From contig JAACJP010000022.1 of the NCBI GenBank assembly GCA_013368375.1, positions 372,001 through 436,000 on the forward strand: a stretch of DNA of 64,000 nucleotides, given 5' to 3'. How positions within the stretch are numbered: the first letter of the stretch is position 1; each line of letters starts with the position of its first letter. Under the pieces are notes generated by a model. It saw only the letters and a program-made list of their open reading frames with translations, was not told the origin of the DNA and did no database searches. The position numbers and the translations under genes were made by a program. This DNA is from Tricholomella constricta. Its lineage: Eukaryota > Basidiomycota > Agaricomycetes > Agaricales > Lyophyllaceae. This document shows positions 3,215-44,573 of this stretch, piece after piece.

Positions 3215-3321
3215 TTTTTTTAAGCTACCTAGCTTTTTTACTGCTGCGTACCCACGCAGTCACCTCAAATTCAAAACTCTATTTCCAACATCAAAAAAGA
3301 ACCCACACACCCCGAGACCCG

Positions 3322-4920
3322 ATGACATCGAACTCCACAACCGGAAAGGACCGAACTCCGGACCACGAGGATGCGCTCACAGCGCATCCTCCATCACAAC
3401 TTCCACTGGACCCAGTGGAAGTCGGATTGGTAGCTGGTGGCCAAAGTCCACCAGCTCAGAATACCTTAGGATTGGAACCCGAGGAATCCCGGCCAAACTC
3501 GCGCAGCAATGTGCCTGGGAATTTGGCCGACGAACTGGCCAGGTCACAACGACCTGGCTCGACATCCGCAAGATGGCCAGAAAGTCGTCTTTCAAGCCGG
3601 TCGCGCGGGGTGATTACCCCGAACATCGTGAAAGTCGAGTCGGACCAAGACAACTTATCCGACCCCGACGAAGTCATCGACAGAGGATTGCTCGCATTGC
3701 GAGTAAAGAGACTCTGGGACACGACCGATGTCCTTAGTGAGTATCGGCGAAGACGACTGGAAGGACGAGCAGACCGTCTCGTCCTACGCTCAACCGGCGC
3801 AGCGACGGTTGGAGAACTTGGCGCTGAAGATTACGCCAACCGGTATATTGAGGCATTATCCGTAGTAGTTACGGAATATAGAAAGAAGTACCCTAAGGGA
3901 ACTTCGAATTCAGCGTTCAGCTCGATCGCCGGGACACCCGTTACTAAGAGTGTCCCACTTGACAAAGGGAAAGGTCGCGAGATCGACCTCTTTACGCCTC
4001 AAGCAATCGCCTCGGGCTCGAATCAGCCCCTTGATGCAGCGGATTTAGCAATATCGGTGCTGCACCAGGCGCGCCAGGAAGGAGAATCCGACGACGATTA
4101 TCGTCGTTGAGCAGCTGCTGCGAAGCGCGAAAGAATGACCCTTGAGGGGCATTTCGCGCAACCACAGGGGTCCAAAGGAGCCCTGACTAGTGAAGCTACA
4201 CTAGATCCACCCACTGTGCGTAATGGAGCAATCGCGCAGGCAGCTGGCAATGAAAGTGCGCCAGCTATTCAAGTTCCTAAGGAAGCAAGGGATGACCGGA
4301 CTCCGTTGGCAAAGGAGTGGGGCACGCGGGTCGTATATCAGCGGTTGAGAAACGCTGATCTGTCGAAGAGCAAGTTCACGAAATATGACGACCAAGGAGT
4401 CGTCTTCGAGGGACGTATGCCCGTCGACGAGATGGCGAGGCAATGGGCCTCGCAAACTCAGGGCTCAGAAGTTGGAATGAGAACTGGGACCGTCGGAGGA
4501 AATCCTACGACGGCGACGGCTAATGGCCGTCAGGACATGCGGGTTCGTATTAACGAACCCTCTGCATCAGCGCAGCCTCGAGCTCAGACTCGAGGTTACT
4601 CAATGCCTGCACCGATCCGCAGGAGTCAATCTATTGCGGACGGAATTCATGCTGCAGGAGAGCAGCATAAGATGAAGATGCACGAACGGTTGCATAATCT
4701 CATACACGAGCGGTTGTCGGTACGACTATCGCTACCTGACGGGATGAAGTCCCGTCGTGCGGACGCAAAGTCCGTAGGCACTTATAGCGGAAGTGCGAAG
4801 TTCGGCGACCTGGAAGAATGGTTGTCGAGCCTGGTCGTTATGTTGGCTGTGAGCCAGTTTGGAGGAGCAGAACGCGACCAAGAGCGCGTTCTGATAACAT
4901 CCGAGTTCCTTGACGGTGAA
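3322..4920 (+). pseudogene. Element A gag, first part
   Basis: The ATG at 3322 opens a 533-codon segment that continues in frame at 20664 once element B is removed (GTGAA duplicated). A TGA at 4108-4110 interrupts it. That T lies opposite a G in an otherwise perfect stem (4089-4109), so it was probably C (CGA to TGA). Near codons 125-195 there is a WDTTDVLSEYRRRRLE segment followed by YANRYIEAL...YRKKYPKG. Two homologous copies of this block occur in element B. Later comes the capsid-like region (GDLEEWLSSLVVML..QFGGAERDQERVL). The product would be a structural Gag of virus-like particles. Confidence 0.75.
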
Positions 4921-5115
4921 TGTAAGGACGCAGGTCCATACTGGTCACCTGTGTTGGCATTGTTTGGCAACGCCTTCGGCGTTGCCTATATCTATTGTTT
5001 ATGTCTATTATTTTAAGTAGATCTTCGCAACTTCATGTACAACTAGCAGAAAAATGACATCTGGTCAAGCTCGGTTGTAGTGTGAAACGCGAGGTCGTCC
5101 TGTAGCACCGCTACA
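4921..5115 (+). repeat. Element B 5' LTR
   Basis: TGTAAGGACG... to ...TGTAGCACCGCTACA. The internal hairpin GGCAACGCC-ttc-GGCGTTGCC matches the position of the A hairpin but with compensatory changes. It is followed by T7 and hairpin GAGCT-atcc-AGCTC (5123-5136). Confidence 0.9.
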
Positions 5116-5235
5116 TTTTTTTGAGCTATCCAGCTCTACTGCTATATCCAGCTATATCCCGCTATATCCCGCTATACTGCTTCTTTTCTTATTCTGGCCA
5201 ATCAAACCCCTTTTGGCCAACACCGACATCTTGAT

Positions 5236-5884
5236 ATGACATCGAGAACCACCCAGGACTATGCGACACGCGGATGGACACACGAGGCCGCGGACACGCG
5301 GCCACGTCACTCGTCGGAACCGCAGTTTGCGGCTCCGAGAGACGTTTCGATGCTCGAAGCATCGAAATTGATGCCACGTCACACGGCAGAAGCGCCGGTG
5401 GCGGTTCCCTCGAGCAAACTCGAGCCCTTCCTATGGAACGGCACAGGCGACTATTCGTCGCCTGTGCACGAAGATTGGATCGAGCTCGCCCTTCTACGGC
5501 GCGAGCTCCAGTTCTTTTGGTCGGCTACTGGGCTAACCGACGAAATTCAGCGACGCAGGCTTGAAGCCTGCGCCGAAAACGATGTATCTGAATACTATGG
5601 ACGAATACACATTGATGTAGGACATACACAGTACCTACAACGATACACGGATGCGCTACGCGCACGCTATCGCGAATGGTGCGGTCGAGGAACCGCACCG
5701 ACTATAAGCACTACACCTTTCACTTGGGAGGTGAAAATCGAAGCATTCTGGGCGACGACTGACGTCCAGAGTCAGTACCGGCGTCGGAGGCTGATAGAGG
5801 CCACCGAGAAGATATACCGGAAGTACGGTGCCCCATATTGGCACCATACGGAGGTCGGCGACTCGTACGCCGACAAAACTATAA
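5236..5884 (+). CDS. Element B ORF, segment 1 (Gag-like, duplicated domain)
   Basis: First 216 codons of a 953-residue product, starting at ATG 5236. Segments 5236-5884, 10389-11062 and 17460-18998 join in phase after removal of F (TSD ACTATAA) and C (TSD ATACT); the sum is 2862 nt. The segment holds one full copy and most of a second copy of a roughly 65-residue block: FFWSATGLTDEIQRRRLE...YLQRYTDALRARYREW, then FWATTDVQSQYRRRRL...GDSYADKTI, which continues with NMLRGIVELYRKRRPK in segment 2. Element A Gag carries one copy. It may be a Gag assembly or RNA-binding domain; that is inference. The coding DNA is packed with perfect inverted repeats, for example an 11-bp stem at 5441-5467. Confidence 0.65.
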
Positions 5885-6109
5885 CACATACAGGCACTAC
5901 AATGTAGCGTGTCCTACGGTCCAGCGGGCCTATACATTGTAGCGTACTTGACGGCACCAGCGGGGCCGCTGGAGCACCAGCGGGGCTCCTACATGTAGCC
6001 GTCTGGCACGGTGCCAGCGGGACCTCTACATGTAGTCATCTGGCACAGTACCAGCGGGCCCGCTGGTGCTGCAGCGGGCCTATATGATGCTGTTGGGGGC
6101 AGTGGGGTG

Positions 6110-8780: not shown

Positions 8781-8799
8781 CCATATAGGCCCACTGTAG

Positions 8800-10140: not shown

Positions 10141-10388
10141 AGTGCCCGCAAGCCACCACCCCACTGCCCCCAACAGCATCATATAGGCCCGCTGCAGCAC
10201 CAGCGGGCCCGCTGGTACTGTGCCAGACGACTACATGTAGAGGTCCCGCTGGCACCGTGCCAGACGGCTACATGTAGGAGCCCCGCTGGCGCTCCAGCGG
10301 CCCCGCTGGTGCCGTCAAGTACGCTACAATGTATAGGCCCGCTGGACCGTAGGACACGCTACATTGTAATGCCCCTACCTGACTATAA

Positions 10389-11062
10389 ACATGCTTCGTG
10401 GGATCGTAGAACTCTACAGGAAGCGGCGTCCGAAGGACGCAAAACTAGGGATATCGCAATCGTGCGATGCAAGTACGATGGTGCAGCAGGCGCCATCGCC
10501 AATAAAGTCGACGAGACCATCAACTGATGGTCTTAAAAGCGAACGTTCGGACGGCTTGAGTGCCGCCCCCTTCAAATCGATCGTGAAGCGATCCGAAAGA
10601 CGCGAGAGCAATGGTCTCGCATCGGTGAACGTCACATATAGTGGCGGACACGACGACCGCAACTGGCGAGCACCGTCGCCGACGCACGAGCAAAATCTGC
10701 GACGGAGGTCACAGCCCAGGCAGGAGGCCCTCCAATCGGGCAACGTAGAGGGTATCGTCGAGCATCGGAGGATGCTCAGGGAGGCACGAACTGAGGAGAA
10801 CGTCGTATCCGAACGACGTTCTGGTGGAGGGGAGAGGTACCAGAGCAGTAGCCGCCACCCCACAAACGAGACGATGAAGGAAACGTCGCAGAGCGACGTT
10901 TTACGAACGAGGTTGCCCAGTAAAGGCGCAACACCCGCTGGCGAGAGAAGCGCCAGTGACACGATGTCGGAGGGGTCGAAGGTACGACCTCCGAACGTTG
11001 AGATGCATCGGGAGGGCGCAAGGAACGAGTACCGACGGAGTATGGTCCAGATAGACCATACT
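10389..11062 (+). CDS. Element B ORF, segment 2
   Basis: Completes the second copy of the duplicated block (MLRGIVELYRKRRPKDAK). It continues as a polar, Ser/Arg-rich, probably disordered stretch (SERSDGLSAAPFKSIVKRSERRES, then ERYQSSSRHPTNETMKE). It ends in phase at the ATACT duplication where chromovirus C entered; beyond that point the apparent frame runs into the C LTR and is not real. No known catalytic motif. Basic, disordered character would suit nucleic-acid binding, but this is only inference. Confidence 0.6.
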
Positions 11063-11568
11063 TGTCAGGGGAACTCCCGCTCGCGCCCTCCGACGCTCAC
11101 AGATCATCCCCCGACTCATGCGATCGCCCCCGACCGACCGATCGCGATCCCGACCCGACGCTCCGACCCAAGCGTCGGTGTACATACTTACATCATTCCT
11201 GTCGCTTCCCTTCCCTCCCTGCGCGCGCCCGACACCGATCCCGACGACCCGACATCCCGACGTCGGCTGTCCCACCTCGTGCCCGTACCCTGCGCCACGA
11301 GGATCAGACAGCGTCGGGAACGTGTCTATACACGCGCCGCACACCATTCGTTATTATTACATGTACAGTACACTCTAGAGGACCGGCCCTCACGTCCTAC
11401 ACTCGTATATAGTCGGCCCCCTGGCATTCGGGAATCCTTTACACTATTCTCTTCGGATTCCCCCTTGCCAGGTAAGCCATTACTTACCTTCGTTACTGTA
11501 CATCCAATATAACTTCGGATTCCCCCTTGCCAGTGTGACTACGCTCCGCTATAAGGGTTGCCCTAACA
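11063..11568 (+). repeat. Element C 5' LTR with TATA box and start site
   Basis: TGTCAGGGGAACTC...GCCCTAACA. TATATAG lies at 11405-11411. 33 bp downstream is TTTACACTATTCT (11438-11450), the probable 5' end of the transcript because it is the exact complement of the primer site after the LTR. A 23-bp motif ending CCCCCTTGCCAG occurs twice (about 11450-11472 and 11513-11535) and brackets GTAAGC...CCAG, a possible leader intron. Confidence 0.85.
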
Positions 11569-11570
11569 GC

Positions 11571-11583
11571 AGAATAGTGTAAA
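11571..11583 (+). promoter_or_regulatory. Self-primer binding site of element C
   Basis: AGAATAGTGTAAA, two bases after the LTR, is a perfect 13-nt complement of TTTACACTATTCT at 11438-11450 in the LTR, placed about one TATA-to-start distance below TATATAG. This is the Tf1 self-priming arrangement, in which the cleaved mRNA 5' end primes reverse transcription. Element D has the equivalent pair with a matching base change. Confidence 0.75.
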
Positions 11584-11694
11584 ACTGAGACCCGACGAAG
11601 TCGGCCGATCCGCTTCCGCGCCGAAACACGTGTCCGCTACACGCGACCCGTTCAACGCGCGCTCGCTCCGATCGCCACCCAGTCCCGTCTCGAG

Positions 11695-12912
11695 ATGTCC
11701 GACTTTGGTGAATTTGACGAGCCGTCGCCTCCCCCTGCGCTTACGCCAGAAGAGCGACTGGCGAGCCTTGAAACCACGATATCGGCTCTCTCCCACACCC
11801 AAACCTCCAACTCGGCCACCCTGGACCGCATATCCTCTCTTTTAAATACCCTCGTTTCGGGGAACCCCTCCGCTGCCTCCCCAGCAGCACCTACGACCCC
11901 TGCGGCGCCGACGCAACCCTTGCCAACGCCGCCTCCCCCTCCGCGATCGGGATCGCACATTCGGCCGTCGCCTCCTCCGATCTACGACGGCGCGTGATCG
12001 GGCGGACGCGCCTTCTGGAACGCATGTCAACTGTACTTCTCGTTGACCACCGGGCAGTTCCCCGATGACCACGCCCGCATTAGCTGGGTGTTGTCATTCA
12101 TGCAGCACGGTCGCGCCGCCGACTTCGTCAGTCGCGTCTTTCAATACGGGTCGGTGAAACTCGCATTCCCGGCCTGGAGCGACTTCGCGTCGAACTTCGA
12201 AAAGGAGTTCTTCCTGTTCGACGAGGTCGCCGACGCCGCACTCACCCTCGAGTCGACGGCGTATTTCCAGAACGGGCGCACCATTGACGAGTACATAGAC
12301 TCGTTCAAAGCCCTGTGGGTCAAGGCCGATTACCCGGATGGTCGCCACCTGGTCCTCAAGTTCCGTCGGGGCATGGACCAGAAGCTTTCGAAGCGACTCG
12401 GAAGCATCACCACAGGTCGGCCCGACGACTCCAAGATCGAGGACTGGTTAGCGGTCGCCCGCTCCCAGGACTTCATCATGAGGACCGAGGAGGACTTCCA
12501 CCGTCGGGCGCCTCCGACCCTCCCTTCGCACAGTCGCGCGGCCGTTCTCGTCCCAGTGCCTGCGGTAGCGCCCGCTCCCCACTGGCAACCCGCTGCGCCA
12601 CCGGCCGCTCCTGCTCGTGTGGCGGCTCCGACGCATGTCGCGCACGCCCCCAAGGCGCCGACTCTCCCTCCCGGCATCCCGATGGATGTCGATCGGTTCC
12701 GCGGCCGCCCTGCTCGCGACGACAACTGTCGTCGGTGCCACCAACCCGGGCACTTCTGGCGCGACTGCCCCCAGCGCTTTGACGTGCGCCACATCATGCC
12801 GGAGGAACTGGATGATCTGATCTTGCAGCTGCTGGCGCGCAAGGACGCGATCCCGGCCGGCCCGACTCCCGCGTCGGCCGACCCAATCTTGGAAACGGGA
12901 GAGGATTTTTAG
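11695..12912 (+). pseudogene. Element C gag, with in-frame TGA
   Basis: The ATG at 11695 (context CTCGAGATGTC, the same as in D) starts a Gag with a capsid-like Retrotrans_gag region (FQNGRTIDEYIDSFKALWVKADYPD) and a CCHC zinc knuckle CRRCHQPGHFWRDC near 12729-12771. TGA at 11995-11997 corresponds to an Arg codon in D (YDGA*SGG versus FDGSRSGG), so CGA to TGA is the simplest history. Pol lies in a different frame (+1) after TAG at 12910. A frameshift during translation or a lost/gained base is possible. Gag would form particles and bind RNA. Confidence 0.8.
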
Positions 12913-12940
12913 TCGCACAACGGGGAAAAGTACGCCCCCG

Positions 12941-15900
12941 TTGTCTAGTCGTAATCGGTTCGCCCCCCTATCTGTAGAGTACCCCAATATACTTGATATT
13001 GCTGCTACTTCTACGGGTGAACCTATCGACGAAGACGTACAATCCTCTCCTGACCAGCCGCCCTCTCCGCTGGTCGCTCCGACCAAACCGACTGTGCCGT
13101 CACGGCGCGGACTTCCACGATGGGAAAAGCGACTGCCCCGTCGCTTCGTGATCGCCGCCTCTTCCGACTCCTTGTCTCTGTCGTTGAAGGTCGAACTAGA
13201 GACCACCGACACCCAGGAGACGCACTCCCTCGTCGCCCTTGTCGACAGCGGAGCCTCGGGTTGCTTCATCAACACCGCCTACGTTGAGAAGCACAAACTA
13301 AAAACCCGACAGCTAAACCGACCAACGCTAGCCTATAACGTTGATGGAACCCCTAACGCAGCGGGTGCCATCGAATACGTGGTAGACGCGGTTCTGCGCT
13401 ATGACGGTCACTCCGAGCGGGTACTGTTCGCAGTCGCAGGCATTGGGAAAGAGGATCTCATCCTCGGGTTTACCTGGCTCCGCGACCACAACCCCGACAT
13501 TGATTGGGCGATGAAGAAGGTGAAGATGAGCCGGGCCCCGACGCGCTGCGACACCTGCAAGGTCGTGGCAAAGGAAGAGCGACGCGCGCGCACCAAAGTA
13601 CGAGCCGCTATTCGGGCCTGTCGGGCCGAAGGGATCCCGCTCACCGAACCCGAGCTGAAGGCCCCGACCGGTCCCTATGTCGAGGACGACTCTGACACCG
13701 ACGAGTTCCTCCCTTACACCCCGATCATGGAGGAACCCGATCCAGAGTCGGACGACTTCCTCACGGAGACCTTCCTGAACGGCGACCGCATCTTTGCGAC
13801 TGCGATCCACCCCCCTCCGACTGTGGCGCACATCCGTGCCAGTCAAACGACATCGCAGCGACTTGCGGAAGCGCATGCCGCGAACTCTGTGCCCAAGTCG
13901 TTCCGCGACGGCGTTCCGACCCACCTTCACGACTTTGAGGACGTCTTCTCCAAGGTCGCGTTCGACGAACTCCCCGATCGCAAACAGTGGGATCATGCAA
14001 TTGAATTGGAGCCGGGCGCTTCGCCGTCCGGCACCAAAGTCTACCCACTGTCGCCGGCGGAGCAAGTCGAGCTCGACGTGTTCCTCAAGGAGAACCTCGA
14101 TTCGGGTCGGATCCGACCGTCGAAATCGCCCATGGCTTCGCCAGTGTTCTTCATCAAGAAGAAGGACGGTGCACTCCGACTGGTGCAGGACTATCGGACG
14201 CTCAACGCGCTCACGGTGAAGAACCGGTATCCGCTGCCACTCATTAGCGAACTGGTGAACAACCTTCGCGGCGCGCGGTACTTCACCAAGCTGGACGTCC
14301 GATGGGGGTACAACAACGTTCGGATCAAGGAAGGCGACGAGTGGAAGGCAGCGTTTCGGACGAACCGCGGTCTCTTCGAGCCGTTCGTCATGTTCTTCGG
14401 CCTCACGAACAGCCCCGCCACATTCCAGACCATGATGAACGACATCTTCCGCGATCTGATCGCCGAGGGTGTTGTTTGCGTGTACCTCGACGATATCTTG
14501 ATTTACACCAAGACTCTCGAGGAACACCGTCGGGTCGCGCGACTAGTGCTGGACCGGCTCCGCGAACATAAGTTGTTCTTAAAGCCCGAGAAATGCGAGT
14601 TCGAACAGACCAAGGTCGAGTACCTGGGGCTGATCATCTCGCACGGGCAAGCGGAAATGGATCCGGTCAAGGTCGCTGGAGTGTCAGAGTGGCCAGCGCC
14701 GAGGAACAAGAAGGAGGTGCAAGCGTTCTTGGGCTTCACCAATTTCTACCGACGGTTCATCCAAGACTTCTCGCACCACGCCCAGCCCCTGTTCGACCTG
14801 ACGGGCAAGGACGTCGCCTGGCGCTGGGAAGCGTCGGAGCAGTCGGCCTTTGACCTCCTGAAGTCTGCGATCATGTCGCGACCGGTGCTTGCATTCCCCG
14901 ACGACGACCGACCGTACCGCATCGAAGCCGATTCGTCTGACTTCGCAACAGGCGCGGTCCTGTCACAAGAGTCGCCGTCCGACGGCAAGTGGCACCTGGT
15001 CGCGTTCTACTCGAAGAGCTTGAACGCTGTCGAGCGGAACTACGAGATCCACGACAAGGAGATGCTGGCGATCATCCGGTCCCTGGAAGAGTGGCGACAC
15101 TTCGTTGAAGGCGCAAAGCACAAGGTGGAGATCTTGACCGACCACAAGAACCTTGAGTACTTCCTCACCGCGAAGAAACTCAATCGGCGTCAAGCCCGAT
15201 GGTCTCTCTACCTCGCCAACTTCGACTTTACCCTCCACCACCGTCCGGGACGCAGCATGGGCAAACCCGACGCTCTGTCGCGTCGCGCTGATCATGGCGA
15301 TGGAAGTGGCGACAATGCCGACATCGTGCTCCTCAAGCCCGAGTTCTTTGCGATTCGTGCAACCGAAGGTCTTGTACTGGTCGGAGAGGAGGACGACGTG
15401 CTGAAGGCGATTCGCAAGGGCAATCGCGACGGCGCACAGGAGGATGCGGTCGCGAAAGCGGCGCAACTGGTCAAGGCTTCCAAGGTCGCCGGACGCTCCC
15501 TACGCTTCGGCGAGTGGGGGGAGGAAGGCGGCCTGCTCACGTTTCGTGGACGGATCTACGTCCCGAACGTCCCAGACCTCCGCCGACGCATTGTGGAGCA
15601 CCACCACGACTCCAAGGTCGCCGGTCACCCAGGTCGCTGGAAGACGTTAGAGCTGGTGTCGCGCAATTACTGGTGGCCCCAGATGTCGCGTTTCATCGGT
15701 TCATACACCAGCACCTGTGACATGTGCCTGCGCACGAAACCTCGCCGCCAACTCCCTGTCGGACAGCTGCAGCCGCTCCCAATCCCCGAAGGCCGATGGA
15801 ATGTCGTGTCGGTGGATTTCATCACCGAACTCCCAGAATCCAACGGCCACGACGCGATCATGAACGTCGTGGATTCGGTCGGAAAGCGTGCGCATTTCAT

Positions 15901-17454: not shown

Positions 17455-17459
17455 ATACT

Positions 17460-18998: not shown

Positions 18999-19036
18999 GC
19001 GGGTTGGGCTCGTGGTGCCCAACAGTTCCTATCCAG

Positions 19037-19841
19037 TGCAGGCGTGCATCATGGCCTCCACGAGGCGTGGTCCGTGCGACATTCAGAGCTATAAATACAT
19101 CGCAATGTACTATGATAGACTATCTTACCATATCCTGCCTTTCCCACCGTAACGTGAGACCTGCTGAGGTTGACGCCTCCATTTGGTGACGACAGTGGCA
19201 TTCGTACCCGCAACTGTCTGTCTGGATCGCCGTCCGCTTCCGGTAAACGAAGCATGATCATCAGTCTACCTACCACCGCCAATAACAACACCCCCCATCT
19301 GCGACTTCCAACACCGGCTCTCCTTTCCTAATCCAATCAACACTCTCCATGCACCAGCACCCTTGCGGTGCTTTTTAAAGTGCTTTTTCTGTTTCCGACA
19401 CCTGCAACTGTTTTTACCCGGTTTTCTCGGTGCTGGAGGGTAGCAAAGGTGATGGGTTCGAGGGCCGCGACGAGGACGTCGCGATGTGGGGGTGGGGCAT
19501 ATGCAGACACTGGCGACACTTCCGCATTAGGACAGATACAGCGCGCATTCAGCATCGCATCACGCCTGGAGACGTTTCACGGTTTCCCATCGCGCCTAGG
19601 TACAGCTGGGGTGATTTAGGGTTGTGTGTTTGGTTTCCGGGCTTAGGTTCGTGTTCGGATCGCGACGAGGACGTCGCTATTTGGGAGTTGGGCACATGCA
19701 GGCGTGCATCATGGCCTCCACGAGGCGTGGTCCGTGCGACATTCAGAGCTATAAATACATCGCAATGTACTATGATAGACTATCTTACCATATCCTGCCT
19801 TTCCCACCGTAACGTGAGACCTGCTGAGGTTGACGCCTCCA
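19037..19841 (+). mobile_element. TRIM-like miniature LTR element nested in B
   Basis: 145-bp direct terminal repeats (19037-19181 and 19697-19841), each starting TG and ending CA, around 515 bp with no coding capacity. The 4-bp duplication CCAG flanks the element (19033-19036 and 19842-19845). Two bases after the first repeat comes TGGTGACGACAGTGGC, a tRNA-type primer-site layout. The second repeat is preceded by a purine-rich GGGAGTTGGG. A TATA-like GCTATAAATACATC lies in each repeat. The internal part repeats a short block (GCGACGAGGACGTCGC) at about 19456 and 19659. Confidence 0.7.
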
Positions 19842-19845
19842 CCAG

Positions 19846-20431
19846 GTCTTTGAGATGCGATATGAGACGCATCAGTCCGGCAGCCGTATCGGTTGTGTGT
19901 CGACGTTGATAAACGTCGAGGTGGCAGCCTACGCGACTTTAACCACAGTCGCAGCGATATCCATCGCTGAAACCCTTGTGGCGTATACGTCGGCGCGATA
20001 AATAGCGCCTCAGTCTTCTGCGGTGGTTCAACCAGCCCTGGTCTGGCAGTTGCAATAGCTGTCGACGAGGAGTCGAAGACGGAGCCAAAAAATCGATGAA
20101 GCCATAAATCACCGGCTAACAACTCGATTGGCGACTATCGAACCAACTCAGGCGCGAAAGTCATCGTTGGGCATTATGTGTCCAACCCTAGCCAGTACGT
20201 CTGCGGAGCATGGACGCCAATCTCTTAGAGACTGGAGGAACAAGTCGCGGTCGACAGAATCAACACTACGTTAGGGCCATGACCTAACATTATTCTTATT
20301 CCATATCGTCGGGGTACCAATACCCAGACGCGACAACTGTGGCGCATAACATATGCGCAATACCTTCGACTATGGGTGCGCGTACTGTACGCGCAATATA
20401 TATCCATACCCTCGACATCCACCTGGGTGTA
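19846..20431 (+). other. Element B non-coding 3' region, hairpin-dense
   Basis: 586 bp without an open frame over about 90 codons. It is built from consecutive short perfect inverted repeats, for example TCGACGTT-gata-AACGTCGA (19900-19919), GCGCATA-aca-TATGCGC (20342-20358) and TGCGCGTA-ctg-TACGCGCA (20377-20395). Because no protein is encoded here, the hairpins cannot be a codon artefact. Confidence 0.6.
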
Positions 20432-20461
20432 AAGATTGCTGAGTGCAATCTTAAAGGGGGG
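20432..20461 (+). promoter_or_regulatory. Hairpin plus polypurine tract of element B
   Basis: AAGATTGC-tgagt-GCAATCTT (20432-20452) runs directly into AAAGGGGGG (20453-20461), two bases before the 3' LTR. The same layout with other stem bases is present in A and E. Confidence 0.75.
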
Positions 20462-20463
20462 TA

Positions 20464-20658
20464 TGTAAGGACGCAGGTCCATACTGGTCACCTGTGTTGG
20501 CATTGTTTGGCAACGCCTTCGGCGTTGCCTATATCTATTGTTTATGTCTATTATTTTAAGTAGATCTTCGCAACTTCATGTACAACTAGCAGAAAAATAA
20601 CATCTGGTCAAGCTCGGTTGTAGTGTGAAACGCGAGGTCGTCCTGTAGCACCGCTACA
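20464..20658 (+). repeat. Element B 3' LTR
   Basis: 195 bp. The only difference from the 5' copy that I noticed is in the AGAAAAATRACATC context (G left, A right), which suggests a young insertion. Confidence 0.9.
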
Positions 20659-20663
20659 GTGAA

Positions 20664-21380
20664 GCTCGGAAGTGGTATAATCGCCATGTTATACACGTGA
20701 ACTGCGATAACCAGTTCTGGACGTTTGAAGACGTCATATTAGGATTGTACGACCGGTTCGTGTTGCCGTCAACCATGCAGGACGCCCGTAACGACTTCAA
20801 TGCCGTTACTTACTCGGCGAGCAAAGGCATACAAGGTCTGTATGATGACCTTGTTGATCATGCTATGAACATGGCAGCAAGAACGGACGATTGGACGTTC
20901 TTGGAAAAATTCCTCAAGACACTCCCGCGTGAGATGCGGAAGGCGCTGTTCGATGACGGGTTATCACCCGAAATCAACACAGCACAAGAGTTCCTAGCGG
21001 TGGGCTTAGCCCACCAAGCAACCCAGAAGACGGCTGATTACTTTGAGCGGAATATAACCGCTCAACGGACTCAACCGAGTCAGCTGAGGAAACCAGATGG
21101 GGGGCGAGTGAACGCCCCACAAAACAACCTCAACCAGTTTCGACGACAGTATGGCGCACCTAACGCGACGCCATATACCAAACCGGCGGCTCAGGAACAA
21201 CAAGGACGTGGAGATCAAAAGCCTCACGTCGATAAACCAGCGGTGAAGACTGGAGATCGTCCGCAAAACGATCACACGAAGAATCACGGCCACCACAATC
21301 ACCCACCTGGCGAGGTGTGTTTCAATTGTGGAGGACTAGGGCATTTTGCAAGGGATTGCAGGAAGCCCAAGAAACCATGA
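20664..21380 (+). pseudogene. Element A gag, second part with zinc knuckle
   Basis: Continues the gag frame across B (FLDGE|ARKWYNRHVIHV). Capsid-type segments WTFEDVILGLYDRFVLPST and GIQGLYDDLVDHAMNMA are shared with E Gag (WTFEDVILGLYDRFVQPST), and the CCHC knuckle CFNCGGLGHFARDC lies near 21317-21358. It ends at TGA 21378-21380, but the next frame (protease) is in the same phase, and E has a sense codon at the aligned place. This TGA is therefore probably a mutated Arg codon inside an original Gag-Pro fusion. The product would be nucleocapsid/capsid. Confidence 0.8.
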
Positions 21381-22130
21381 GCGTACATAATGGCCGCTTA
21401 TACGGCGGCAATTGATGCAGCGAGCGACGCGGACGACGAAGATGCGTCTCCCGAGGATCCGGATGGACGAGAAACTGGACGCCCTGATACAGAGGCGGAC
21501 AAAGAAGATGAGGACGATGAGTTCGTAGACATGGAGGTCTACGAAAATGAATACTATGCTCGGGACGATGAGACCGAGCGTATGTTTGCGATGACGGAGG
21601 TAATTGCATCAGAAGAACGCAAGGAGAAGCCGTCGTTTCGCAAAGTAAAGGTGCGGACGGGCAGGGACAAGATTGCTCGCCCTGTACTGCCAATAAAGGA
21701 CAAGGAGTGCCTTGTAACCTACATCAATGTAGGTGGCCACGAAGCGTGGACCCTATGGGACTCCGGGAGTACAACTACCGGACTTACTCCGTCGTTCGCT
21801 CAAGTGGCCGACATTCGCGTATTTCCGCTGGAGGATCCATTAATCCTACAGCTCGGAACGAAAGGAAGTCGGGCCACAGTAAACTTTGGCACGACGGTGG
21901 AAACCGTCCTTCCAGGATTTGAAGGCAAGGTCTACATGGACCTTGCTAACTTTGATCGATACGACGTGATTATAGGCACGCCGTTTATGCGCGCTAATAA
22001 AGTCGTGCTGGATTTTAATCGTGACGAAGTTATCGTCAACGGAGTCGCTACACCAGCGACGAAAGTCAAAATGGAGGATAGCGATGGTCGTGCTAGACGC
22101 CATCGGTCGTTGGAGAAACGAAAGGAATGA
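21381..22130 (+). pseudogene. Element A protease region
   Basis: In phase with gag. An acidic linker (DDEDASPEDPDGRETGRPD, then EVYENEYY-type residues, also seen in E) leads to a retropepsin-like aspartic protease: LWDSGSTTTGLTPSFAQVA with the catalytic Asp near 21759, and YDVIIGTPFMRANKVVLDF near the C-terminal side. It ends at TGA 22128-22130 in the context gaa-TGA-ctc. E has a TGA at the homologous place in the context gat-TGA-ctc, and the RT frame continues in phase in both. Confidence 0.8.
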
Positions 22131-25100
22131 CTCAAAGTAACAGTAGAAGATGACGATGATCCTGACGATGAGGGTAGGCCGATAAACAGCCTACCGAAGG
22201 ATCATCCAGCAATTCTAGTGTCCGATGCAGAGTTCCAAGAAACTCTGAAGGAGGGGGATAAGCCACCTCCGAAGACAAAGAAACCCCAACGACGACAGCA
22301 GAAGGCACAAACGGAGCCTTCGAAGGAACAAGAACAGGCTAATGAGCCATGTGAAGAACGTCAGCGCGATAATGAAGCGCTAAAGACGAACGAAGCCGAC
22401 AAGGATACGGGATCAGAACTGTGTTCTAATACAAGTAGTCGATCATTCTGGGACCGACCTAATCCACATCCACAATATGAGTGGATGTTCGACCCGAGGA
22501 TGCCGCAAGAATGGAACGCAGTAATAGCGTCCATGCGGGCACACGAAGGACGGAACGTAGGCACGCTAGGAAAAGCGTACCGAAATCCTCGGCCTGAGGA
22601 AGTGTCGGAGCCAACGGAAATGAACTTTCCGGTGAATACACAACGGGCAAAACGGCCGTTATATCGGCTGCCAGTGAAGGACGAGAGTGACTTTGCTCTC
22701 GTGAAACTACGAGCTAGGTTCGACGATAAACCTAGCAAGGGAGACACAGCGTATATCCGCGCTGCAAGAACTGTCAAAGGAAAAGGTAAGGCACACAATG
22801 GAGGCCTTACCGAAGAAGATTATCCACGACTTCGTCAGCAATGGCACGACGAATTCGAAGACATGGTGGGTGGTACAAAACAACAGTTACCACCCTGGCG
22901 AGAAGTCAACCACGAGATAACTCTCGTCGACGACGAGAAACAATATCAGTACCACGCACCGAGGTGCCCAATGTCCCTTCGCGAGGAATTCTATGCGAAG
23001 GTCAATCGGTATACGGACTCCAAGTGGTGGGAGCCTCGTTCGGTGAAGCAAGCAGCGCCGCTGCTATGTATCCCGAAAAAGGATGGCTCCCTGAGAACAC
23101 CTCTGGATGCACGGCAACGTAACGACAATACTATAAAGGACGTTACGCCGTTGCCGGACCAGGAAATCATCCGTGAGGATGTTGCCCGAGGAAAGATACG
23201 GTCAAAGATCGATCTAACGGATGCGTATGAACAAGTACGCATCCTCGAAAAGGACGTACAAGACCGCTTTTGCAACAATAGCGGGAACGTACGTTAGCAA
23301 CATAATGCAGATCGGGGACTGTAATGCCCCCGCAACATTTCAACGGCTAATGACGTCCATCTTTTGGGACGTCATTGGGAAGTTCATGCATGTATACTTG
23401 GACGACATATTCATATTTTCGAACTCCATTGAAGAGCATGAAGATCATCTACGAGTAGTGTTCGAGCGATTACGCGAACAATCCCTTTATCTGAAGTGGA
23501 AAAAATGCGAACTGTATTCGGATCGCGTCGACTGCCTTGGTCATATAATTGACGACCAAGGAATTCGTCCCGACGCAGATAAATTGGCACGGATCCGTGA
23601 GTGGAAAACACCACGGAATTACAATGATATCCAACGATTCGTTGGACTTGTGAATTATCTGGGACAATTCCTCCCAGATATATCAGCGTATACTGGACCA
23701 CTAATGGCAATGACCGAAAATGGGTCGCCATTCTACTGGAGGCCGATTCACCAACGATGCTTTGAAATGATAAAGCATATATGTTGTACGACACCAATAA
23801 TTCGGCCTATTCAACCGAAGACAGGCGAGCCAATTTGGATCATCTGTGACGCCTCGAAGTCAGGCGTCGGTGCGATGTATGGGCAAGGACCTACATGGAT
23901 CCAAGCTCAACCGGCTGGATTCATGTCCAGGAAATTTACCAATGCGCAGCAAAATTATGCCGTGCATGAATTAGAAACTCTGGCGATTCTTGAGGCGCTA
24001 TTAAAGTGGGAGGATAAACTTGTGGGGTATAAAATCCACATTATTACCGACCACAAAGCCCTCGAGTTCTTTAAAACCCAGGTGAACTTATCACCTAGGC
24101 AGCGTCGCTGGATGGAGTATATGTCGCGATTTAACTTCGACATCACCTATGTGAAAGGCGAACTGAATAAAGTCGCCGATTGTTTATCGCGATACTTTGA
24201 AAGCGATACTCCTCAAGATAGATACGATGTCCACGACTTCGTAGCCGCCGATGCAAGAATCGACCCCACTGGAGAAGATTTACCGGTTCCACGATACCAT
24301 GAGATCGTGGAAAAAGTGGTCGAAATTCGAGCAATGAAGGACGTAGAAATACGTCGCAGCAAGCGGCTTCAAGAACGCCAGGAGGACCGGGATATTGAAG
24401 CCCAAATTATGGAGGACGCGGCACCAAGTGTCGCATCTAAACCCTCATCACACCCTCAGGAGAGCATAAGTCCAACCGAGCGTGACCGCACGGTTGGAGA
24501 TATTGTGTTAGGGAGGGACACAGTTGCCCCTCCCCCAGATAAGACGGATGAGAGTATCCGTCGTGAAGTTATCCTTGGATATCCAAAGGATAAACTCTTC
24601 TCGGCTATTATCGAGAACCCCAAAGACTTTCGTAACTTTACTTCGAAAGATAAACTTATATGGACCAAGAACGCTACCAATGACAGCGTTCTATGCATAC
24701 CGCGAGAGCCGAAGCTCATCACGTCAATCGTTGAACAAGCCCATAAAACTATGGGACATTTCGGCGCAGAACGAACAACGGAATATATACGACGTTGGTA
24801 TTGGTGGCCCTCGCTAGCCACTACCGTGCGTACATTTTGTAAAACGTGCGAATACTGCCAGCAGATCAAGACGTCCAACCAGAAGCCGTCAGGGAAATTA
24901 CATTCCCTGCCCGTACCAACAAAGCCCTGGGACTCCATTGGAATGGACTTTATTGGTCCATTCCCAGAATCCAATGGATGTAATTACCTATGGGTAGTAA
25001 TCTGCCGCATGACAAGTATGGTGCATTTGATACCCATACATACGACTATGACCGCAGCCCAACTATCGTGGGTATACCTACGGGAGATCGTCAGGCTACA

Positions 25101-26028
25101 TGGCCTGCCGAGCTCGATCGTAAGCGATCGAGATTCGAAGTTTACATCGCGCTGGTGGCGCGAGCTACATAAATTATTAGGAGCTAAGCTCCTAATGTCG
25201 ACATCTTTCCACCCTCAGACGGATGGACAGACGGAACGGGCCAATCGTAGTATTGGACAAATTTTCCGCGCCGTAGTGAGACACGACCAGAAGGACTGGG
25301 TAGACCGTGCACCCATGGCCGAATTCGCGATAAACGCGAGTGTATCGGCCACTACCAAGTTCGCCCCATTCGAGCTTAATGGAGGCTATATGCCATCTAT
25401 GTTGAAGGAGATACGCTCAGACAGCGTAATACCGAAGGGAATTCGGGAGTACGCCGAGCGAGCATTACAAAACATAGCGGAGGCTCACGACGCTATAATT
25501 GAGGCGCGCGTATTTCAAACGCACGAGGCCAATAGACGTCGATCAGTGGGTCCCGACATAAAGGGGGGCGACTTGGTGTATTTATCAACCAAGAATTTGA
25601 ATCTTCCCAAGGGACGCGCACGAAAATTGTGCCCGAAGTTTGTCGGGCCCTACAAAGTACTCAAGGCCATGCCAGAAACGTCGAACTATACGTTGGAATT
25701 ACCAACGGCGTTAATGGAGCGCCGGATTCATCCAACGTTTCACATATCGCTGTTGCGTCCGTACCACGCAACGAATGATGTGATGTTTCCGAATAGAACT
25801 CATCCGGAGCCCTATGATTTTGGGGCGCCGGATAATCACGAATGGTTCGTGGAAGACATTTTGGGCCACAGATGGACCCAAAATAATGCTATTGAATACC
25901 AAGTTCGGTGGAGTCTGGGAGACACCACCTGGGAACCGCACACTAATTGCAACAAGTTAGCGGCACTCGACCGCTACTTAGAATTGCAGGGAGTAAGGAG
26001 CGCGTCTAAATTGCCGCGAAGAGTTTAG
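22131..26028 (+). pseudogene. pol: Element A Pol: RT, RNase H, integrase, chromodomain-like tail, with frameshift
   Basis: Open from 22131 in the protease frame to about 23259. There two bases are missing compared with E (E reads PEDVPKTAFATIAG), and the frame continues at 23221-26028. RT YLDDIFIF at 23395-23406. RNase H (ICDASKSGVGAMYGQ ... TDHKALEFF). Integrase zinc finger HKTMGHFGAERT...CEYCQQIK and DDE context IGMDFIGPFPES ... SIVSDRDSKFTSRWW ... HPQTDGQTERANR. Tail WFVEDILGHRW...IEYQVRWSLGDTTWEPH is chromodomain-like. Inactive as it stands because of the deletion. Hairpins run through the gene although the homologous E codons do not form them. Confidence 0.88.
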
Positions 26029-26152
26029 ACTGTGGCACGATCATGTGACCATGGCGATCAAGAAATTACATAACCATCAAAGGGTTATGGCAGGAGGTTA
26101 AATATGTTTTTTGGCGCTAGTACGCGTAACCGACTTCAACTTCAACCACAAC

Positions 26153-27073
26153 ATGTACCCCAACCCAGGACCCACCTCCTCCAGCAACGACGTGATTCGG
26201 GGCGGCGACAGCCGCACCGACCTTCAAAATCTGAACCCGGGACCGAGTTCGAGTGGGGGGGAAGTGCAGGGGCGCGTGGAAAACGCGCCCCCGCCTCCAT
26301 CCTACATGGGCTCACAAACCCAGATGTATCAGTACCCGCCGGCTGGCCATATGAGCCAGCCCCATCAAGGGCAACAACCATATCCAACGGTTGGCCAAAT
26401 GAGCCAACCGCCCCACCAGGGGCAACAACCACCGATGGGTGGTTTTTACCCACCAGCGATGGCATTTCAACAGATGCCATCGATGGCGAACCACATGGGG
26501 TACCCGCAGCCGATGTGGTACCCCCAAATGCCGATGCAGCCGGTACCGCAACATATGCGGTACAACGAACCTGAGCCGATGGAAGTAGACGATCAGAGTC
26601 GTCTACGGGCACCTACCCCTCCGGCGCAAGTGTCGCGCGGCGAATCATCGCGTCGCCCCGTTGCGCAGAACGCAGTCGCGTCGAGTTCGCAAAGGCCGGC
26701 AGACGATCGCAGAGCGTCGTCTGCATCAAGTTCGCGGAGACCATCTGCAGACGATGGTCTCCTCAATTCTCTACTGGATCGATTGGATGCCGCGGGGATT
26801 AACCGCGAATTTTGTGAATTCTTGGACGACGGAATGGCGCAGCTGGTCATTACCCAGCTGCTGGATGCATACGAAGGAGCCCGTGAGGAATTGGGCCGAA
26901 TAAGAGCGAGAGAACGGGCCATGGCTGAGCAACTCAGCCTGGCAAGAAAACGGCCGGCGGTATCGTCGCCGGATCGAGGGGAGGGATCATCATCCCGACC
27001 CATGAAGAGGCAGCAGACGGAGGGGCGTCGAGAGGAACGCACCTCGTATGAACCGAGAAGGAGCGAGTTGTAA
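26153..27073 (+). pseudogene. Element A accessory ORF, N-terminal half (unknown function)
   Basis: Open frame after integrase; the first ATG is at 26153, though upstream codons are open to 26111. The N-terminal two thirds are Pro/Gln/Met-rich and probably disordered (repeats of MSQPPHQGQQPP type). A conserved core RLDAAGINREFCEFLDDGMA...QLLDAYEGAREELGRIRA, then QLSLARKRPA, aligns with E (RLESVGVAPDFVVDFIHDGMA...ALRKRPA) and looks helical/coiled coil. It ends at TAA 27071. The next conserved block follows at 27187 after a short tRNA-like insertion. I do not recognise the family. It is not a standard envelope gene: no signal peptide or membrane segment is visible. Confidence 0.55.
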
Positions 27074-27169
27074 GGGAGACGGCCGTCGTTTCCCTAGTAA
27101 TGACCCCGGGGTTATGCTACCCGACGGCTAGAGTTAAATCTGACTAAAAGGCAAAGTGGTAACAGAGGA

Positions 27170-27253
27170 CTATGGTGTAGTGGTAACACGAGTCGCGGGT
27201 TCGACCCCCGCTAGTTCTAGTTTTCTCGGGGACGTGGGTTCGATTCCCGCCTG
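27170..27253 (+). other. tRNA-like Pol III box segment inside element A accessory region
   Basis: A-box-like TGGTGTAGTGG (27173-27183), B-box GTTCGACCC (27199-27207), T run (27221-27224), then a second B-box-like GGTTCGATTCC (27237-27247). A cloverleaf lacking an anticodon arm can be drawn: 7-bp acceptor AGGACTA/TAGTTCT, D stem GTGT/ACAC, T stem GCGGG/CCCGC. ACACGAGTC occurs on both sides of the second part (near 27186 and 27261), like a small target duplication. Not a normal tRNA gene. Confidence 0.4.
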
Positions 27254-29193
27254 AGCTGTTACACGAGTCCAGGCGTCAGGAACGACGCCCGGAACCAGAG
27301 TATCGGCGGCAGGAACGCCATCCCGACCATGAAGTGCGGCGCGATGAACGCCCACTTGACTATGGTGCGCAACGGGATGAGCACGCTCGGGAAGCGTCGC
27401 TCCCACTACCAATCCCGGGAGAAAGCCGGGTGCGGAACCCAGAGAGAGGTTCCCAGAAGAAGGAACCTGTCGGCAAGTATACCTTGCCGCCGCCATCACC
27501 CGCACCACCTACTCCGATGGTGCAGCCTCCGACACCGCCGCCTAAATCAAAAGGCAAGCAGAAGGTGTCCGACCCATACACCGAGGCTATGGCTGAGTCG
27601 GATTACGGCGAGTCCTCAGATGACGGGAAGCCCGTCAGCAAGAAGAAGGCTGCCGGGCGGAAGCAGCAGCGTGAGAACTTGGCTCGCAAGGCTGAGAAAG
27701 AGGCGACAGGGCGGATCCCTGATGAACTCGGGGTGGTCTTCGTCGACAACCGCCACGAGAGGGACAACCGGTTCTGGGATATGCTAACGCGGGCGATATA
27801 TGTATCGCCCGCCCAAAATCGGGCCTATGCCCTGGACACAGCAGCTCGCGCAGCAGAAAGCGAGCTGGGAACGGGACAAACATTCCGTCCCTCAAGTGGG
27901 CGGCTATATGCCGTCGCTCCACGCGGGTTCCCAATGAACCCTCGTGAAGTTGACCAGCTCTACACTCTGGTCACTAGACCACAACACGGAGTGACGGACC
28001 AAGAGCGGGCCGAGGCCTTTATGCTCTTTAGAGAGTTCCGTCATGTGGCCCTGTCGGTAGCGCCCCATTTGCGCGACCGAGCCATGACTCGTATAGCAGC
28101 CGACGAGTTCAAAAATATCGGACGACCGTTCGATAAAAAGTCCCACATTTGGCAGGTCGCCCACATTAGGCGGCCTGGAAAGGCGTTTGTATACCGGCCT
28201 GATAAGCCGACCCGAGGTGCTGGCTTGCCACAACCCGGCCCCGACCACGCCTTTGATGTCGAGCATTGGTGTCGACATATGATTCACCATGGCCGTATTG
28301 GTTCCAGAAACCAATACGGCGGTATTGTTATGGACTACCGGTTCCACGTCCACCGTCGCGGAACGTGGGGATACTTGTTGGCAAACATGCTCGCGCCAAC
28401 ACCGCATAGTTTGCGGACATGGTTTATGCGAATATTCGCAACCATCACCGCTCGGCCATACCTCTATTCAGAGGCAGTGGCGGCCCACGACGAGGCCCAA
28501 CCGGATCGGCCTTTCACGCCGATCGTCGGGCCCGAGGTGATTATCCCTCACATACAAGTGACCGCCCCAGAGGGACGCGTCACTGTAGAAGGTGTCATTC
28601 AACACCTTATAAACAGTGGTATTCCCATTCCGTGGATAAACCACAGTTATACGTATGGTCTACACTATTTGGACCATAATTACTCCACGGCAGGTCCTCA
28701 CCGAGACCTGCTGCGCAACACCGATGACGATCGAGTACGTCGTCTCGATCAATTGGGCATTCCTCCCGCTATGGATGAGTGGGACGGGTGGTATCATCCT
28801 ACCACCGACGACATTTCGCGCATCCACATGTTGATGCAATTAGAGCTCCATAACGATGGGCTCGACTGTCTACTCAACTCAGAGTGGATGCTCGTGGGTG
28901 AAGACCCACATTTCCGAGAACTCCGTGTTCGGACTGGGGAATTTCCCCCTCCGGACCTGCACCATCCCGCTTCATCGGGATCGACGGCTTACATCGTCGA
29001 AATGGCGGACCCGGCGGCAGCCATACCTGCCCCCGCGACATCATCCACAGTCGCGGCAGCTTCACTCGAAGCTGCCGAAACCCCAGTGGACCCCGTGTCG
29101 GCTCTTACTGAGCCTCTATCACAGGCGGTGATAACCACCAGCCCAGGTCCGGTGGAAACTAACCCCACCGACCTTGATACTGTGATGGAGTAA
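27187..29193 (+). CDS. Element A accessory ORF, C-terminal domain (unknown function)
   Basis: Open frame of about 668 codons. It starts within Arg/Glu-rich sequence (QERRPEPEYRRQER) and a Pro/Lys-rich linker. It then enters a conserved domain of about 400 residues also found in E: VAPRGFPMNPREVDQL, RGAGLPQPG, FDVEHWCRHMIHHGR, YGGIVMDYRFHVHRRGTWGY, MRIFATITARPYLYSEAV, PWINHSYTYGLHYLDHNYS, GIPPAMDEWDGWYHPTTDDI. Many conserved Trp, His, Tyr and Asp residues suggest a folded, possibly enzymatic or capsid-binding domain, but no known motif is evident. Acidic, Pro/Ala-rich end. Its position after integrase and before the polypurine tract implies a subgenomic or readthrough product. Confidence 0.65.
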   Translation, partial: HESRVRPPLVLVFSGTWVRFPPELLHESRRQERRPEPEYRRQERHPDHEVRRDERPLDYGAQRDEHAREASLPLPIPGESRVRNPERGSQKKEPVGKYTLPPPSPAPPTPMVQPPTPPPKSKGKQKVSDPYTEAMAESDYGESSDDGKPVSKKKAAGRKQQRENLARKAEKEATGRIPDELGVVFVDNRHERDNRFWDMLTRAIYVSPAQNRAYALDTAARAAESELGTGQTFRPSSGRLYAVAPRGFPMNPREVDQLYTLVTRPQHGVTDQERAEAFMLFREFRHVALSVAPHLRDRAMTRIAADEFKNIGRPFDKKSHIWQVAHIRRPGKAFVYRPDKPTRGAGLPQPGPDHAFDVEHWCRHMIHHGRIGSRNQYGGIVMDYRFHVHRRGTWGYLLANMLAPTPHSLRTWFMRIFATITARPYLYSEAVAAHDEAQPDRPFTPIVGPEVIIPHIQVTAPEGRVTVEGVIQHLINSGIPIPWINHSYTYGLHYLDHNYSTAGPHRDLLRNTDDDRVRRLDQLGIPPAMDEWDGWYHPTTDDISRIHMLMQLELHNDGLDCLLNSEWMLVGEDPHFRELRVRTGEFPPPDLHHPASSGSTAYIVEMADPAAAIPAPATSSTVAAASLEAAETPVDPVSALTEPLSQAVITTSPGPVETNPTDLDTVME

Positions 29194-29557: not shown

Positions 29558-29559
29558 TA

Positions 29560-37550: not shown

Positions 37551-37552
37551 CA

Positions 37553-44568: not shown

Positions 44569-44573
44569 AGATC

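What the first reader, a model, noticed from the sequence alone, without database searches (positions are those of the whole stretch)
3322..29193. Hairpin-saturated retrotransposons: elements A and B are packed with perfect short inverted repeats
Seen directly: walking through A (4280-4900, 23200-25200, 26340-26820, 28260-29130) and B (5270-5880, 18120-18900, 19846-20431), a perfect inverted repeat with 6-12 bp arms and a short loop appears about every 25-45 bp. Examples: 12 bp 28292-28303/28309-28320; 11 bp 5441-5451/5457-5467; 9 bp 4868-4876/4885-4893 and 25176-25184/25188-25196; 8 bp 23219-23226/23237-23244, 26457-26464/26475-26482 and 26585-26592/26599-26606. With equal base use an 8-bp stem with loop up to 10 is expected about once in 6-7 kb. 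The stems cross gag, pol, accessory and non-coding parts. The homologous E codons do not pair, and C/D pol lacks the pattern, so it is not a protein constraint. One broken stem (4089-4109) is broken exactly at the base that creates a stop codon, so the stems predate decay. Possible roles: genome-wide ordered RNA structure for packaging or dsRNA evasion, or folding of cDNA.
Basis: seen in the sequence. Interest (0 to 1): 0.92.

Follow-up and report, generated by a model that had tools for sequence, protein, structure and literature searches.

The report
Hairpin-packed mushroom retrotransposons
A family of jumping genes in a mushroom genome carries short perfect hairpins along most of its length, protein-coding parts included, a property best known from persistent RNA viruses and here apparently kept by weak natural selection.

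Summary
In A and B, perfect inverted repeats (arms >=6, loops 3-12) are 3.5-8.5 times commoner than in codon shuffles that keep protein and codon usage, more so at longer arms. Elements C and D (one Ty3-type family) lie at chance. In 8 aligned pieces of copies, stem sites change 27% less than position-shifted controls (0 of 2000 shifts as low), and stem pairs covary more than wide-loop stems (19 of 39 against 13 of 51). An MFED measure modelled on a published one gives A 24.6%, B 20.0%, sister element E 18.7%, C 7.6%, D 2.2%; PMC7642675 quotes 23.4% as the highest for vertebrate RNA viruses. I read this as genome-scale ordered RNA structure in an LTR-retrotransposon lineage. An oddity remains: in A one G-U pair is no better than a mismatch, so the signal is nearly strand-symmetric, unlike plain folding-energy selection. 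A purely mutational origin is disfavoured, not excluded. Function is untested.

The parts
2989..3214 (+). 5' LTR of element A, with stems 3026-3050 (10 bp) and 3062-3083 (9 bp)
   Evidence: 100% identical to 29560-29785; stems; the 9-bp stem covaries with the B and E LTRs
3215..4919 (+). Element A, 5' internal part: ORFs 3322-4110 and 4135-4919; the latter resembles the gag-side ORF of E
   Evidence: 13+14 stems >=6 against 1.7+2.2 in codon shuffles; BLASTP to E 51200-53224
4920..5115 (+). 5' LTR of element B, with stem 4966-4986 (9 bp)
   Evidence: 99.5% identical to 20463-20658
5116..5890 (+). Element B internal part 1 (ORF 5236-5907), hairpin-rich
   Evidence: 12 stems >=6 against 2.2
10374..11062 (+). 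Element B internal part 2, hairpin-rich
   Evidence: 10 stems >=6 against 2.1
17455..20462 (+). Element B internal part 3 (ORF 17421-18998 and 3' part), hairpin-rich
   Evidence: 16 stems >=6 against 4.6 in the ORF; 8 stems >=7 in 18999-20658 against 0.8
20463..20658 (+). 3' LTR of B; polypurine tract plus LTR start (20453-20470) identical to A's
20659..22130 (+). Element A: gag zinc-knuckle ORF (20697-21380) and protease ORF (21390-22130)
   Evidence: PF00098 5e-8, PF08284 6.5e-5; stems 10 and 9 against 1.2 and 2.5
22218..26028 (+). Element A pol: RT, RNase H, integrase, SH3 and weak chromo domain; split here into 22218-23297 and 23221-26028, while 36 of the 49 listed copies have a 1299-codon frame (two of these 36 with stops inside)
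26111..27073 (+). Element A accessory ORF 1, similar to E 39070-40488 over about 70 residues
   Evidence: 13 stems >=6 against 3.1
27334..29193 (+). Element A accessory ORF 2, similar to E 37705-39039; the four named homologues found are from Lyophyllaceae
   Evidence: 27 stems >=6 against 4.8
28292..28320 (+). Longest hairpin in A and B: 12-bp stem, 5-base loop, inside accessory ORF 2
29194..29785 (+). Element A 3' non-coding part (stems 29275-29295, 29424-29450, 29528-29548), polypurine tract 29549-29559 and 3' LTR 29560-29785
37317..53684 (-). Element E (LTRs 37317-37550 and 53451-53684), sister of A (71% aa in pol); strongly folded, only a weak excess of short perfect stems; carries D inserted at about 44574-50414
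11063..17454 (+). Element C, Ty3-type control without the pattern
   Evidence: 12 stems >=6 against 11.9; MFED 7.6%; Pfam
44574..50414 (+). Element D, of the same family as C (88% identical over 3.9 kb), control without the pattern
   Evidence: 13 stems >=6 against 14.8; MFED 2.2%

Best explanation
[quoted passage not shown] In A and its partner B this takes the form of serial short hairpins (uninterrupted stems of 6-12 bp, loops mostly 3-12), gained and lost by single substitutions at positions that differ between families. Shown: the excess over protein-preserving shuffles, the lower substitution rate in stems, excess compensatory change, high folding-energy difference, and shared LTR ends, polypurine tract and LTR hairpin in A and B. 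Inferred: that RNA is the folded molecule in the cell; that folding compacts the genomic RNA or makes it a better substrate for Gag capture and packaging, and/or hides it from host RNA surveillance; and that B, in which no pol was found, carries the same trait because it uses the same particle machinery as A.
For: Codon-shuffle excess in the eight A and three B ORFs tested, none in C or D. In A, loops 3-12: arms of 4 1.06x, 5 1.7x, 6 3.5x, 7 7.5x, 8 15x (sums). Native folding of A and B ORFs 6-11 kcal/mol per 120 nt below codon shuffles, Z -5.3 to -9.4 on the sense strand. MFED with 350-nt fragments: A 24.6, B 20.0, E 18.7, C 7.6, D 2.2%; sense minus antisense +3.3 (se 1.3), +4.7 (1.7), +6.7 (1.0) for A, B, E. 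Two further copies of the C/D family (91-94% identical) show no folding excess and no excess of stems >=6. Stem sites change less: 0.222 against 0.304 changes per site for shifted annotation, 0 of 2000 shifts as low. Third codon positions in pol are less divergent in stems in 9 of 9 comparisons with stems defined in an outgroup copy (not independent); of three tested, 17/167 against 189/1059 P 0.014, 10/132 against 200/1097 P 0.001, 16/142 against 153/1047 P 0.31. Covariation with matched ascertainment 19/39 against 13/51 (one-sided P 0.02), arms >=8: 13/24 against 1/11 (P 0.013); against controls free of hairpin sites 10/37 (P 0.043). LTR hairpin with three two-sided compensatory differences among A, B and E, though E's outermost pair is lost. 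A stems (taken from copy L018) are not jointly conserved in E: 119 of 273 pairs unchanged on both sides, 115 expected, the kind of turnover reported for GORS viruses (PMC7642675, abstract and passages).
Against: In A, 7-bp windows with one G-U pair are enriched 1.8x, no more than with one A-C (2.1x) or other mismatch (2.4x), while all-Watson-Crick windows are 14.6x; plain RNA-folding selection should favour G-U. Folding excess is as large or larger on the antisense strand in 5 of 8 A ORFs and 1 of 3 B ORFs, and the 150-nt test shows no sense excess in A (-0.12, se 0.15). C also shows a sense excess (+3.5, se 1.4). In A, stem losses by class are equally reduced for G-U, A-C and other changes, and T-to-C changes are not reduced at all (40 against 38.2 expected). 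Gains of perfect stems in A occur at about the neutral rate (14.2 observed, 13.8 expected), though B shows 21.8 against 10.4. Wide-loop control stems also had reduced loss ratios (A 0.72, 13.4 of 18.5; B 0.25, 1.0 of 3.9). E stems >=6 in A show slightly more joint conservation than expected (40 of 84, 33 expected). The only clean Ty3-type negative is one family (C, D and their copies). No RNA probing, expression or packaging data.
Confidence: 0.6

Rival explanations
1. Mutational origin: during reverse transcription the new strand folds back on imperfect palindromes and copies itself, so imperfect inverted repeats become perfect (quasi-palindrome correction or template switching). B shares the pattern because A's reverse transcriptase copies it. 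Stems are by-products.
For: Strict Watson-Crick pairing, near strand symmetry, loop limit and sharing by A and B all fit. The pattern covers coding and most non-coding parts alike. 3'-arm codons of A pol are less like E than 5'-arm codons in 3 of 4 related copies (0.60-0.66 against 0.73-0.76; equal in L018), an asymmetry that directional copying could give.
Against: Gain rate from one-mismatch stems in A equals the neutral rate (14.2 against 13.8). 38 of 39 stem gains (extensions at stem ends included) needed one pair only, and the 40 changed bases split 20:20 between arms. Two-sided changes are too few to account for the lower divergence in stems: 6 Watson-Crick doubles among 217 changed pairs. 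A and E pol align with only 42-63 gap columns in about 1300, so stems arose by substitution, not insertion. Sense excess in B and E.
Confidence: 0.15
2. The selected molecule is single-stranded cDNA or both strands: perfect hairpins protect, compact or pace the DNA intermediate, so G-U is as bad as A-C.
For: Equal enrichment of one-G-U and one-A-C windows in A and almost equal sense and antisense folding excess.
Against: E prefers G-U over A-C (2.5x against 1.15x) and B slightly so (5.0x against 4.3x); both have a sense-strand excess. Single changes in hairpin stems tend to G-U slightly more than in control stems (114:110 against 127:167, P 0.09).
Confidence: 0.15
3. Composition, codon usage or tandem repetition gives the stems by chance.
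For: None found.
Against: Excess over dinucleotide shuffles and codon shuffles. Tandem Repeats Finder lists no array in A and arrays at three places in B (5127-5181, 17650-17791, 18780-18946). The C/D family is at chance.
Confidence: 0.02

Closest known systems
[quoted passage not shown] abstract and passages seen)
   Same: High MFED along the genome; many serial stem-loops in coding sequence; lower diversity at paired sites; pairings poorly conserved between relatives
   Different: Here in LTR retrotransposons of a mushroom. In A the excess sits in uninterrupted Watson-Crick stems and G-U gives no benefit; MFED of A is at the top of the quoted virus range (my shuffling program differs from theirs)
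Yeast Ty3 genomic RNA structure by SHAPE-MaP (PMC11381356; abstract and passages seen)
   Same: Ty3-type LTR retrotransposon RNA with internal folding
   Different: There a well-folded core of about 20% of the sequence; the passages I saw mention no genome-long serial hairpins. Not compared by my own calculation
Quasi-palindrome correction / template-switch mutation (recalled, no paper read)
   Same: Would make perfect short inverted repeats on both strands
   Different: Gain rate, arm symmetry of gains and scarcity of two-sided changes do not fit

Membership tests
GORS | MFED clearly above dinucleotide-shuffled controls along the whole genome | tested here: met
   A 24.6% (43 fragments), B 20.0% (16), E 18.7% (38); C 7.6% (21), D 2.2% (20)
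GORS | Structure not explained by protein or codon usage | tested here: met
GORS | Paired sites less variable than unpaired sites | tested here: met
   (0.222 against 0.304; 0 of 2000 shifts); lower in 9 of 9 comparisons, not all significant
GORS | Pairings turn over between relatives | tested here: met
   A stems in E: both-unchanged pairs 119 of 273, 115 expected; E stems in A slightly above expectation, 40 of 84 against 33
GORS | Pairing behaves like RNA (G-U tolerated, sense strand preferred) | tested here: inconclusive
   Met in E, partly in B; in A G-U not tolerated and sense excess small or absent
GORS | Stem-loops form in the RNA in vivo | not testable with these tools
   needs chemical probing
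GORS | Association with long-term persistence or evasion of sensing | not testable with these tools
   function not tested
Ty3-type (chromovirus-like) LTR retrotransposon, for A | LTRs, gag zinc knuckle, protease, RT, RNase H, integrase in that order, with chromodomain | tested here: met
   the chromodomain match (1.7e-3) is below Pfam's cut-off
Non-autonomous LTR partner, for B | Shares LTR ends and polypurine tract with an autonomous element but encodes no pol | tested here: met
   no Pfam match in ORFs 5236-5907 and 17421-18998 (ORF 10391-11512 not scanned); copy L053 is about 4.06 kb LTR to LTR. Use of A's proteins is inferred

The most novel reading that the evidence does not exclude
The selected unit is not folding energy but an uninterrupted Watson-Crick hairpin of about 6-12 bp with a loop of 3-12, used as a dispersed, redundant mark every 80-90 bases along the genome of an autonomous retrotransposon and its non-autonomous partner, read by one of their own proteins (Gag or a Lyophyllaceae accessory protein), for example for packaging or cDNA handling.
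Probability: 0.2. Interest if true: 0.9.

Novelty: new variant of a known kind. Interest (0 to 1): 0.72.

Why it matters
Ordered structure along a whole coding genome is known from persistent RNA viruses of vertebrates, where it is linked to escape from sensing. Finding it, at viral or higher strength, in LTR retrotransposons of a mushroom, beside a Ty3-type family that lacks it, would suggest that the trait is not tied to animal immunity. It also gives a natural comparison of elements with and without it in one genome, with dozens of copies for evolutionary tests. The near-absence of G-U in A asks what reads the hairpins.

Tried and rejected
Rejected: chance, composition and codon usage; tandem repeats; stems inherited from the A/E ancestor (no excess of jointly conserved A pairs); stems as small insertions (few gaps between A and E pol); strong ongoing palindrome repair. 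Slid-partner controls overstate pairing because stems are ascertained as perfect, so wide-loop stems ascertained the same way were used as control. Pairwise counts between copies are not independent; tree-based counts replaced them. Results that do not fit neatly: the pol-like ORF 57000-59491 has a stem excess (9 against 4.3 at >=6, 4 against 1.2 at >=7, 2 against 0.3 at >=8) but no folding excess; L063, a C/D-family copy, has 4 stems >=7 against 1.9; A has 7 palindromes with arms >=8 and loops 0-2 against 0.8, and loops 17-60 give 22 arms of 7 against 15, so the loop limit is strong but not absolute. L062 and L063 were fetched as other Ty3 families but proved to be of C's and D's family, so they are no independent control. 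Led nowhere: first alignment with mixed strands (redone); IMG/VR search (none). Paper listings on hairpins, ordered structure or MFED in retrotransposons showed no title on the subject; only open-licence papers are held and only PMC7642675 and PMC11381356 were opened, in passages. DNA of relatives in other mushrooms was not available here.

Dropped or chosen rows: trees used the window plus 13 of the 38 A-pol loci held (L001-L008, L017-L046), 7 five-prime loci and 8 B loci; pieces matching less than half of the query were left out, which removed L007 from one piece. L054, L056, L058 and L060 gave no A 5' match, and L049 covered too little; these were not used. Branches next to the root were excluded from directed counts.
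Full report
What was checked. The window lies in an unnamed 44-Mb genome of 118 contigs. Accessory ORF 27334-29193 has five protein relatives, four of them named: two from Lyophyllum atratum, one from L. shimeji and one from Tricholomella constricta (only the 7995 best candidates were scored), all Lyophyllaceae (for two of the species), so the host is probably of that family. Self-comparison gives nested elements: A (LTRs 2989-3214 and 29560-29785, 226 bp, 100% identical) is interrupted by B (LTRs 4920-5115 and 20463-20658, 99.5%), which is interrupted by a repeat-rich inverted structure (5893-10373) and by C (LTRs 11063-11568 and 16949-17454). On the minus strand lies E (LTRs 37317-37550 and 53451-53684) with D inserted. 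A, C and D are Ty3-type with RT, RNase H and integrase matches; C and D belong to one family (88% over 3.9 kb).

The hairpin excess. Perfect arms of >=7 with loops 3-15 occur 208 times in the window against 36-46 in five dinucleotide shuffles. Codon shuffles that keep protein and codon usage give, for A pol, 6.4 stems of >=6 on average (maximum of 100: 11) against 38 observed; C, D and the 34724-35923 ORF lie at expectation, the E ORFs 1.6-1.9 times and the 57000-59491 ORF 2.1 times above it. In A the excess grows with arm length at loops 3-12: 1.06-fold at arms of 4, 1.7 at 5, 3.5 at 6, 7.5 at 7, 15 at 8; at loops of 13-16 it is 1.4-1.7-fold at arms of 6-7, and there are 7 palindromes with arms >=8 and loops 0-2 against 0.8. 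In 11,058 bases of A there are 144 non-overlapping hairpins.

Folding energy. Windows of 120 nt fold 6-11 kcal/mol below codon shuffles in A and B, 4-6 in E, and 0.4-1.2 in C, D and the 34724 ORF (sense strand). With a 350-nt dinucleotide-shuffle measure modelled on that of PMC7642675 (a different shuffling program, 12 shuffles per fragment, step 250) MFED is 24.6% for A, 20.0% for B, 18.7% for E, 7.6% for C and 2.2% for D. That paper quotes 7.5-10.7% for HCV, about 15% for SARS-CoV-2 and 23.4% as the highest among vertebrate RNA viruses then examined (passages). Sense exceeds antisense in A, B and E, but also in the weakly structured C; with 150-nt windows it does so in B and E only. Two further genomic pol pieces show no folding excess, but they are of C's and D's family, so the clean Ty3-type negative is one family.

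Copies and selection. Forty-nine places, the window's included, encode A pol at 93-100% identity, 43 of the 49 without a stop inside the match; only 49 of 1147 candidates were scored. Thirty pol loci fall into six groups at 83-97% nucleotide identity. On eight aligned pieces stem sites have 0.222 parsimony changes per site against 0.304 when the stem map is shifted in steps of three bases (0 of 2000 shifts as low); loop sites are not constrained (0.306 against 0.290). Where both partners vary, 19 of 39 pairs show two-sided Watson-Crick replacement, against 13 of 51 in stems of the same minimum length with loops of 20-120 (one-sided Fisher P 0.02). Losses of perfect 8-bp stems run at 0.55-0.57 of the neutral rate, while wide-loop controls gave 0.72 (A) and 0.25 (B) on few events; gains are neutral in A (14.2 against 13.8) and doubled in B (21.8 against 10.4). 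The selection therefore looks real but weak, and many single changes do break pairs.

Relation of A, B and E. A and B have the same LTR ends, the same polypurine tract and LTR start (AAAGGGGGGTATGTAAGG; E differs at two bases) and a homologous LTR hairpin, which in E keeps pairing through two two-sided changes (its outermost pair is lost) and in B through one. E shares A's pol (71% aa) and parts of both accessory ORFs. A's stems are not conserved in E beyond what independent conservation of the two arms gives, and E's stems in A only slightly, so what is shared is mainly the tendency to fold, not the individual hairpins.

The unexplained part. In A, windows of seven pairs are 14.6-fold enriched when all pairs are Watson-Crick, but only 1.8-fold with one G-U, 2.1-fold with one A-C and 2.4-fold with another mismatch; in E the figures are 2.1, 2.5, 1.15 and 1.45; in B 11, 5.0, 4.3 and 2.1. 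E behaves like ordinary RNA folding; A does not. Either A's hairpins are read by something that needs an uninterrupted duplex, or pairing matters on both strands, or perfect repeats were generated by a copying process in the past. The last is disfavoured by gain rates, arm symmetry of gains and the scarcity of two-sided changes, but a past burst followed by slow decay is not excluded: inferred losses (90 stems) exceed gains (39), and parsimony may bias that; also, codons in 3' arms are less like E than those in 5' arms in 3 of 4 related copies.

Verdict. Best reading: genome-scale ordered RNA structure in an LTR-retrotransposon lineage of a mushroom, in A and B in the form of short strict hairpins. 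Ten paper searches in the open library, six of them on this subject, listed no paper describing it; subscription papers were not searched.

Noticed in passing
27166-27219: tRNA-like stretch (Rfam RF00005, 43.6 bits; ARAGORN reports none) without an anticodon arm, between the accessory ORFs of A; it lies next to a segment that the other five group representatives lack.
   Followed up: partly
3215-3240, 5116-5140 and 53450-53425 (minus strand): After each 5' LTR of A, B and E stands T6-7 followed by AAGCT or GAGCT, not a tRNA-type TGG; the LTR holds the complementary AGCTT or AGCTC, and the pair covaries (read by eye). Possible self-priming as in Tf1 (recalled).
   Followed up: no
5893-10373: Inverted structure inside B whose arms are arrays of about 89-bp repeats rich in CCGCGGAC palindromes.
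   Followed up: no
32657-37290 and 59387-64000: 4.6-kb inverted duplicate, 99.5% identical; the first copy encodes CxC5 and CxC6 cysteine-cluster proteins associated with KDZ transposases (second copy not scanned).
   Followed up: partly
30830-31520 and 55280-56760: Long imperfect CCA/ACG-type repeat tracts, strongly C- and A-skewed.
   Followed up: no
26111-29193; E 37705-40488 (minus strand): Two ORFs downstream of pol without a Pfam match above cut-off, shared in part by A and E; the four named homologues of ORF 27334-29193 are from Lyophyllum and Tricholomella.
   Followed up: partly
56963-59491: Pol-like ORF of another retroelement (RT, RNase H) with a mild excess of perfect stems but no folding excess.
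   Followed up: no
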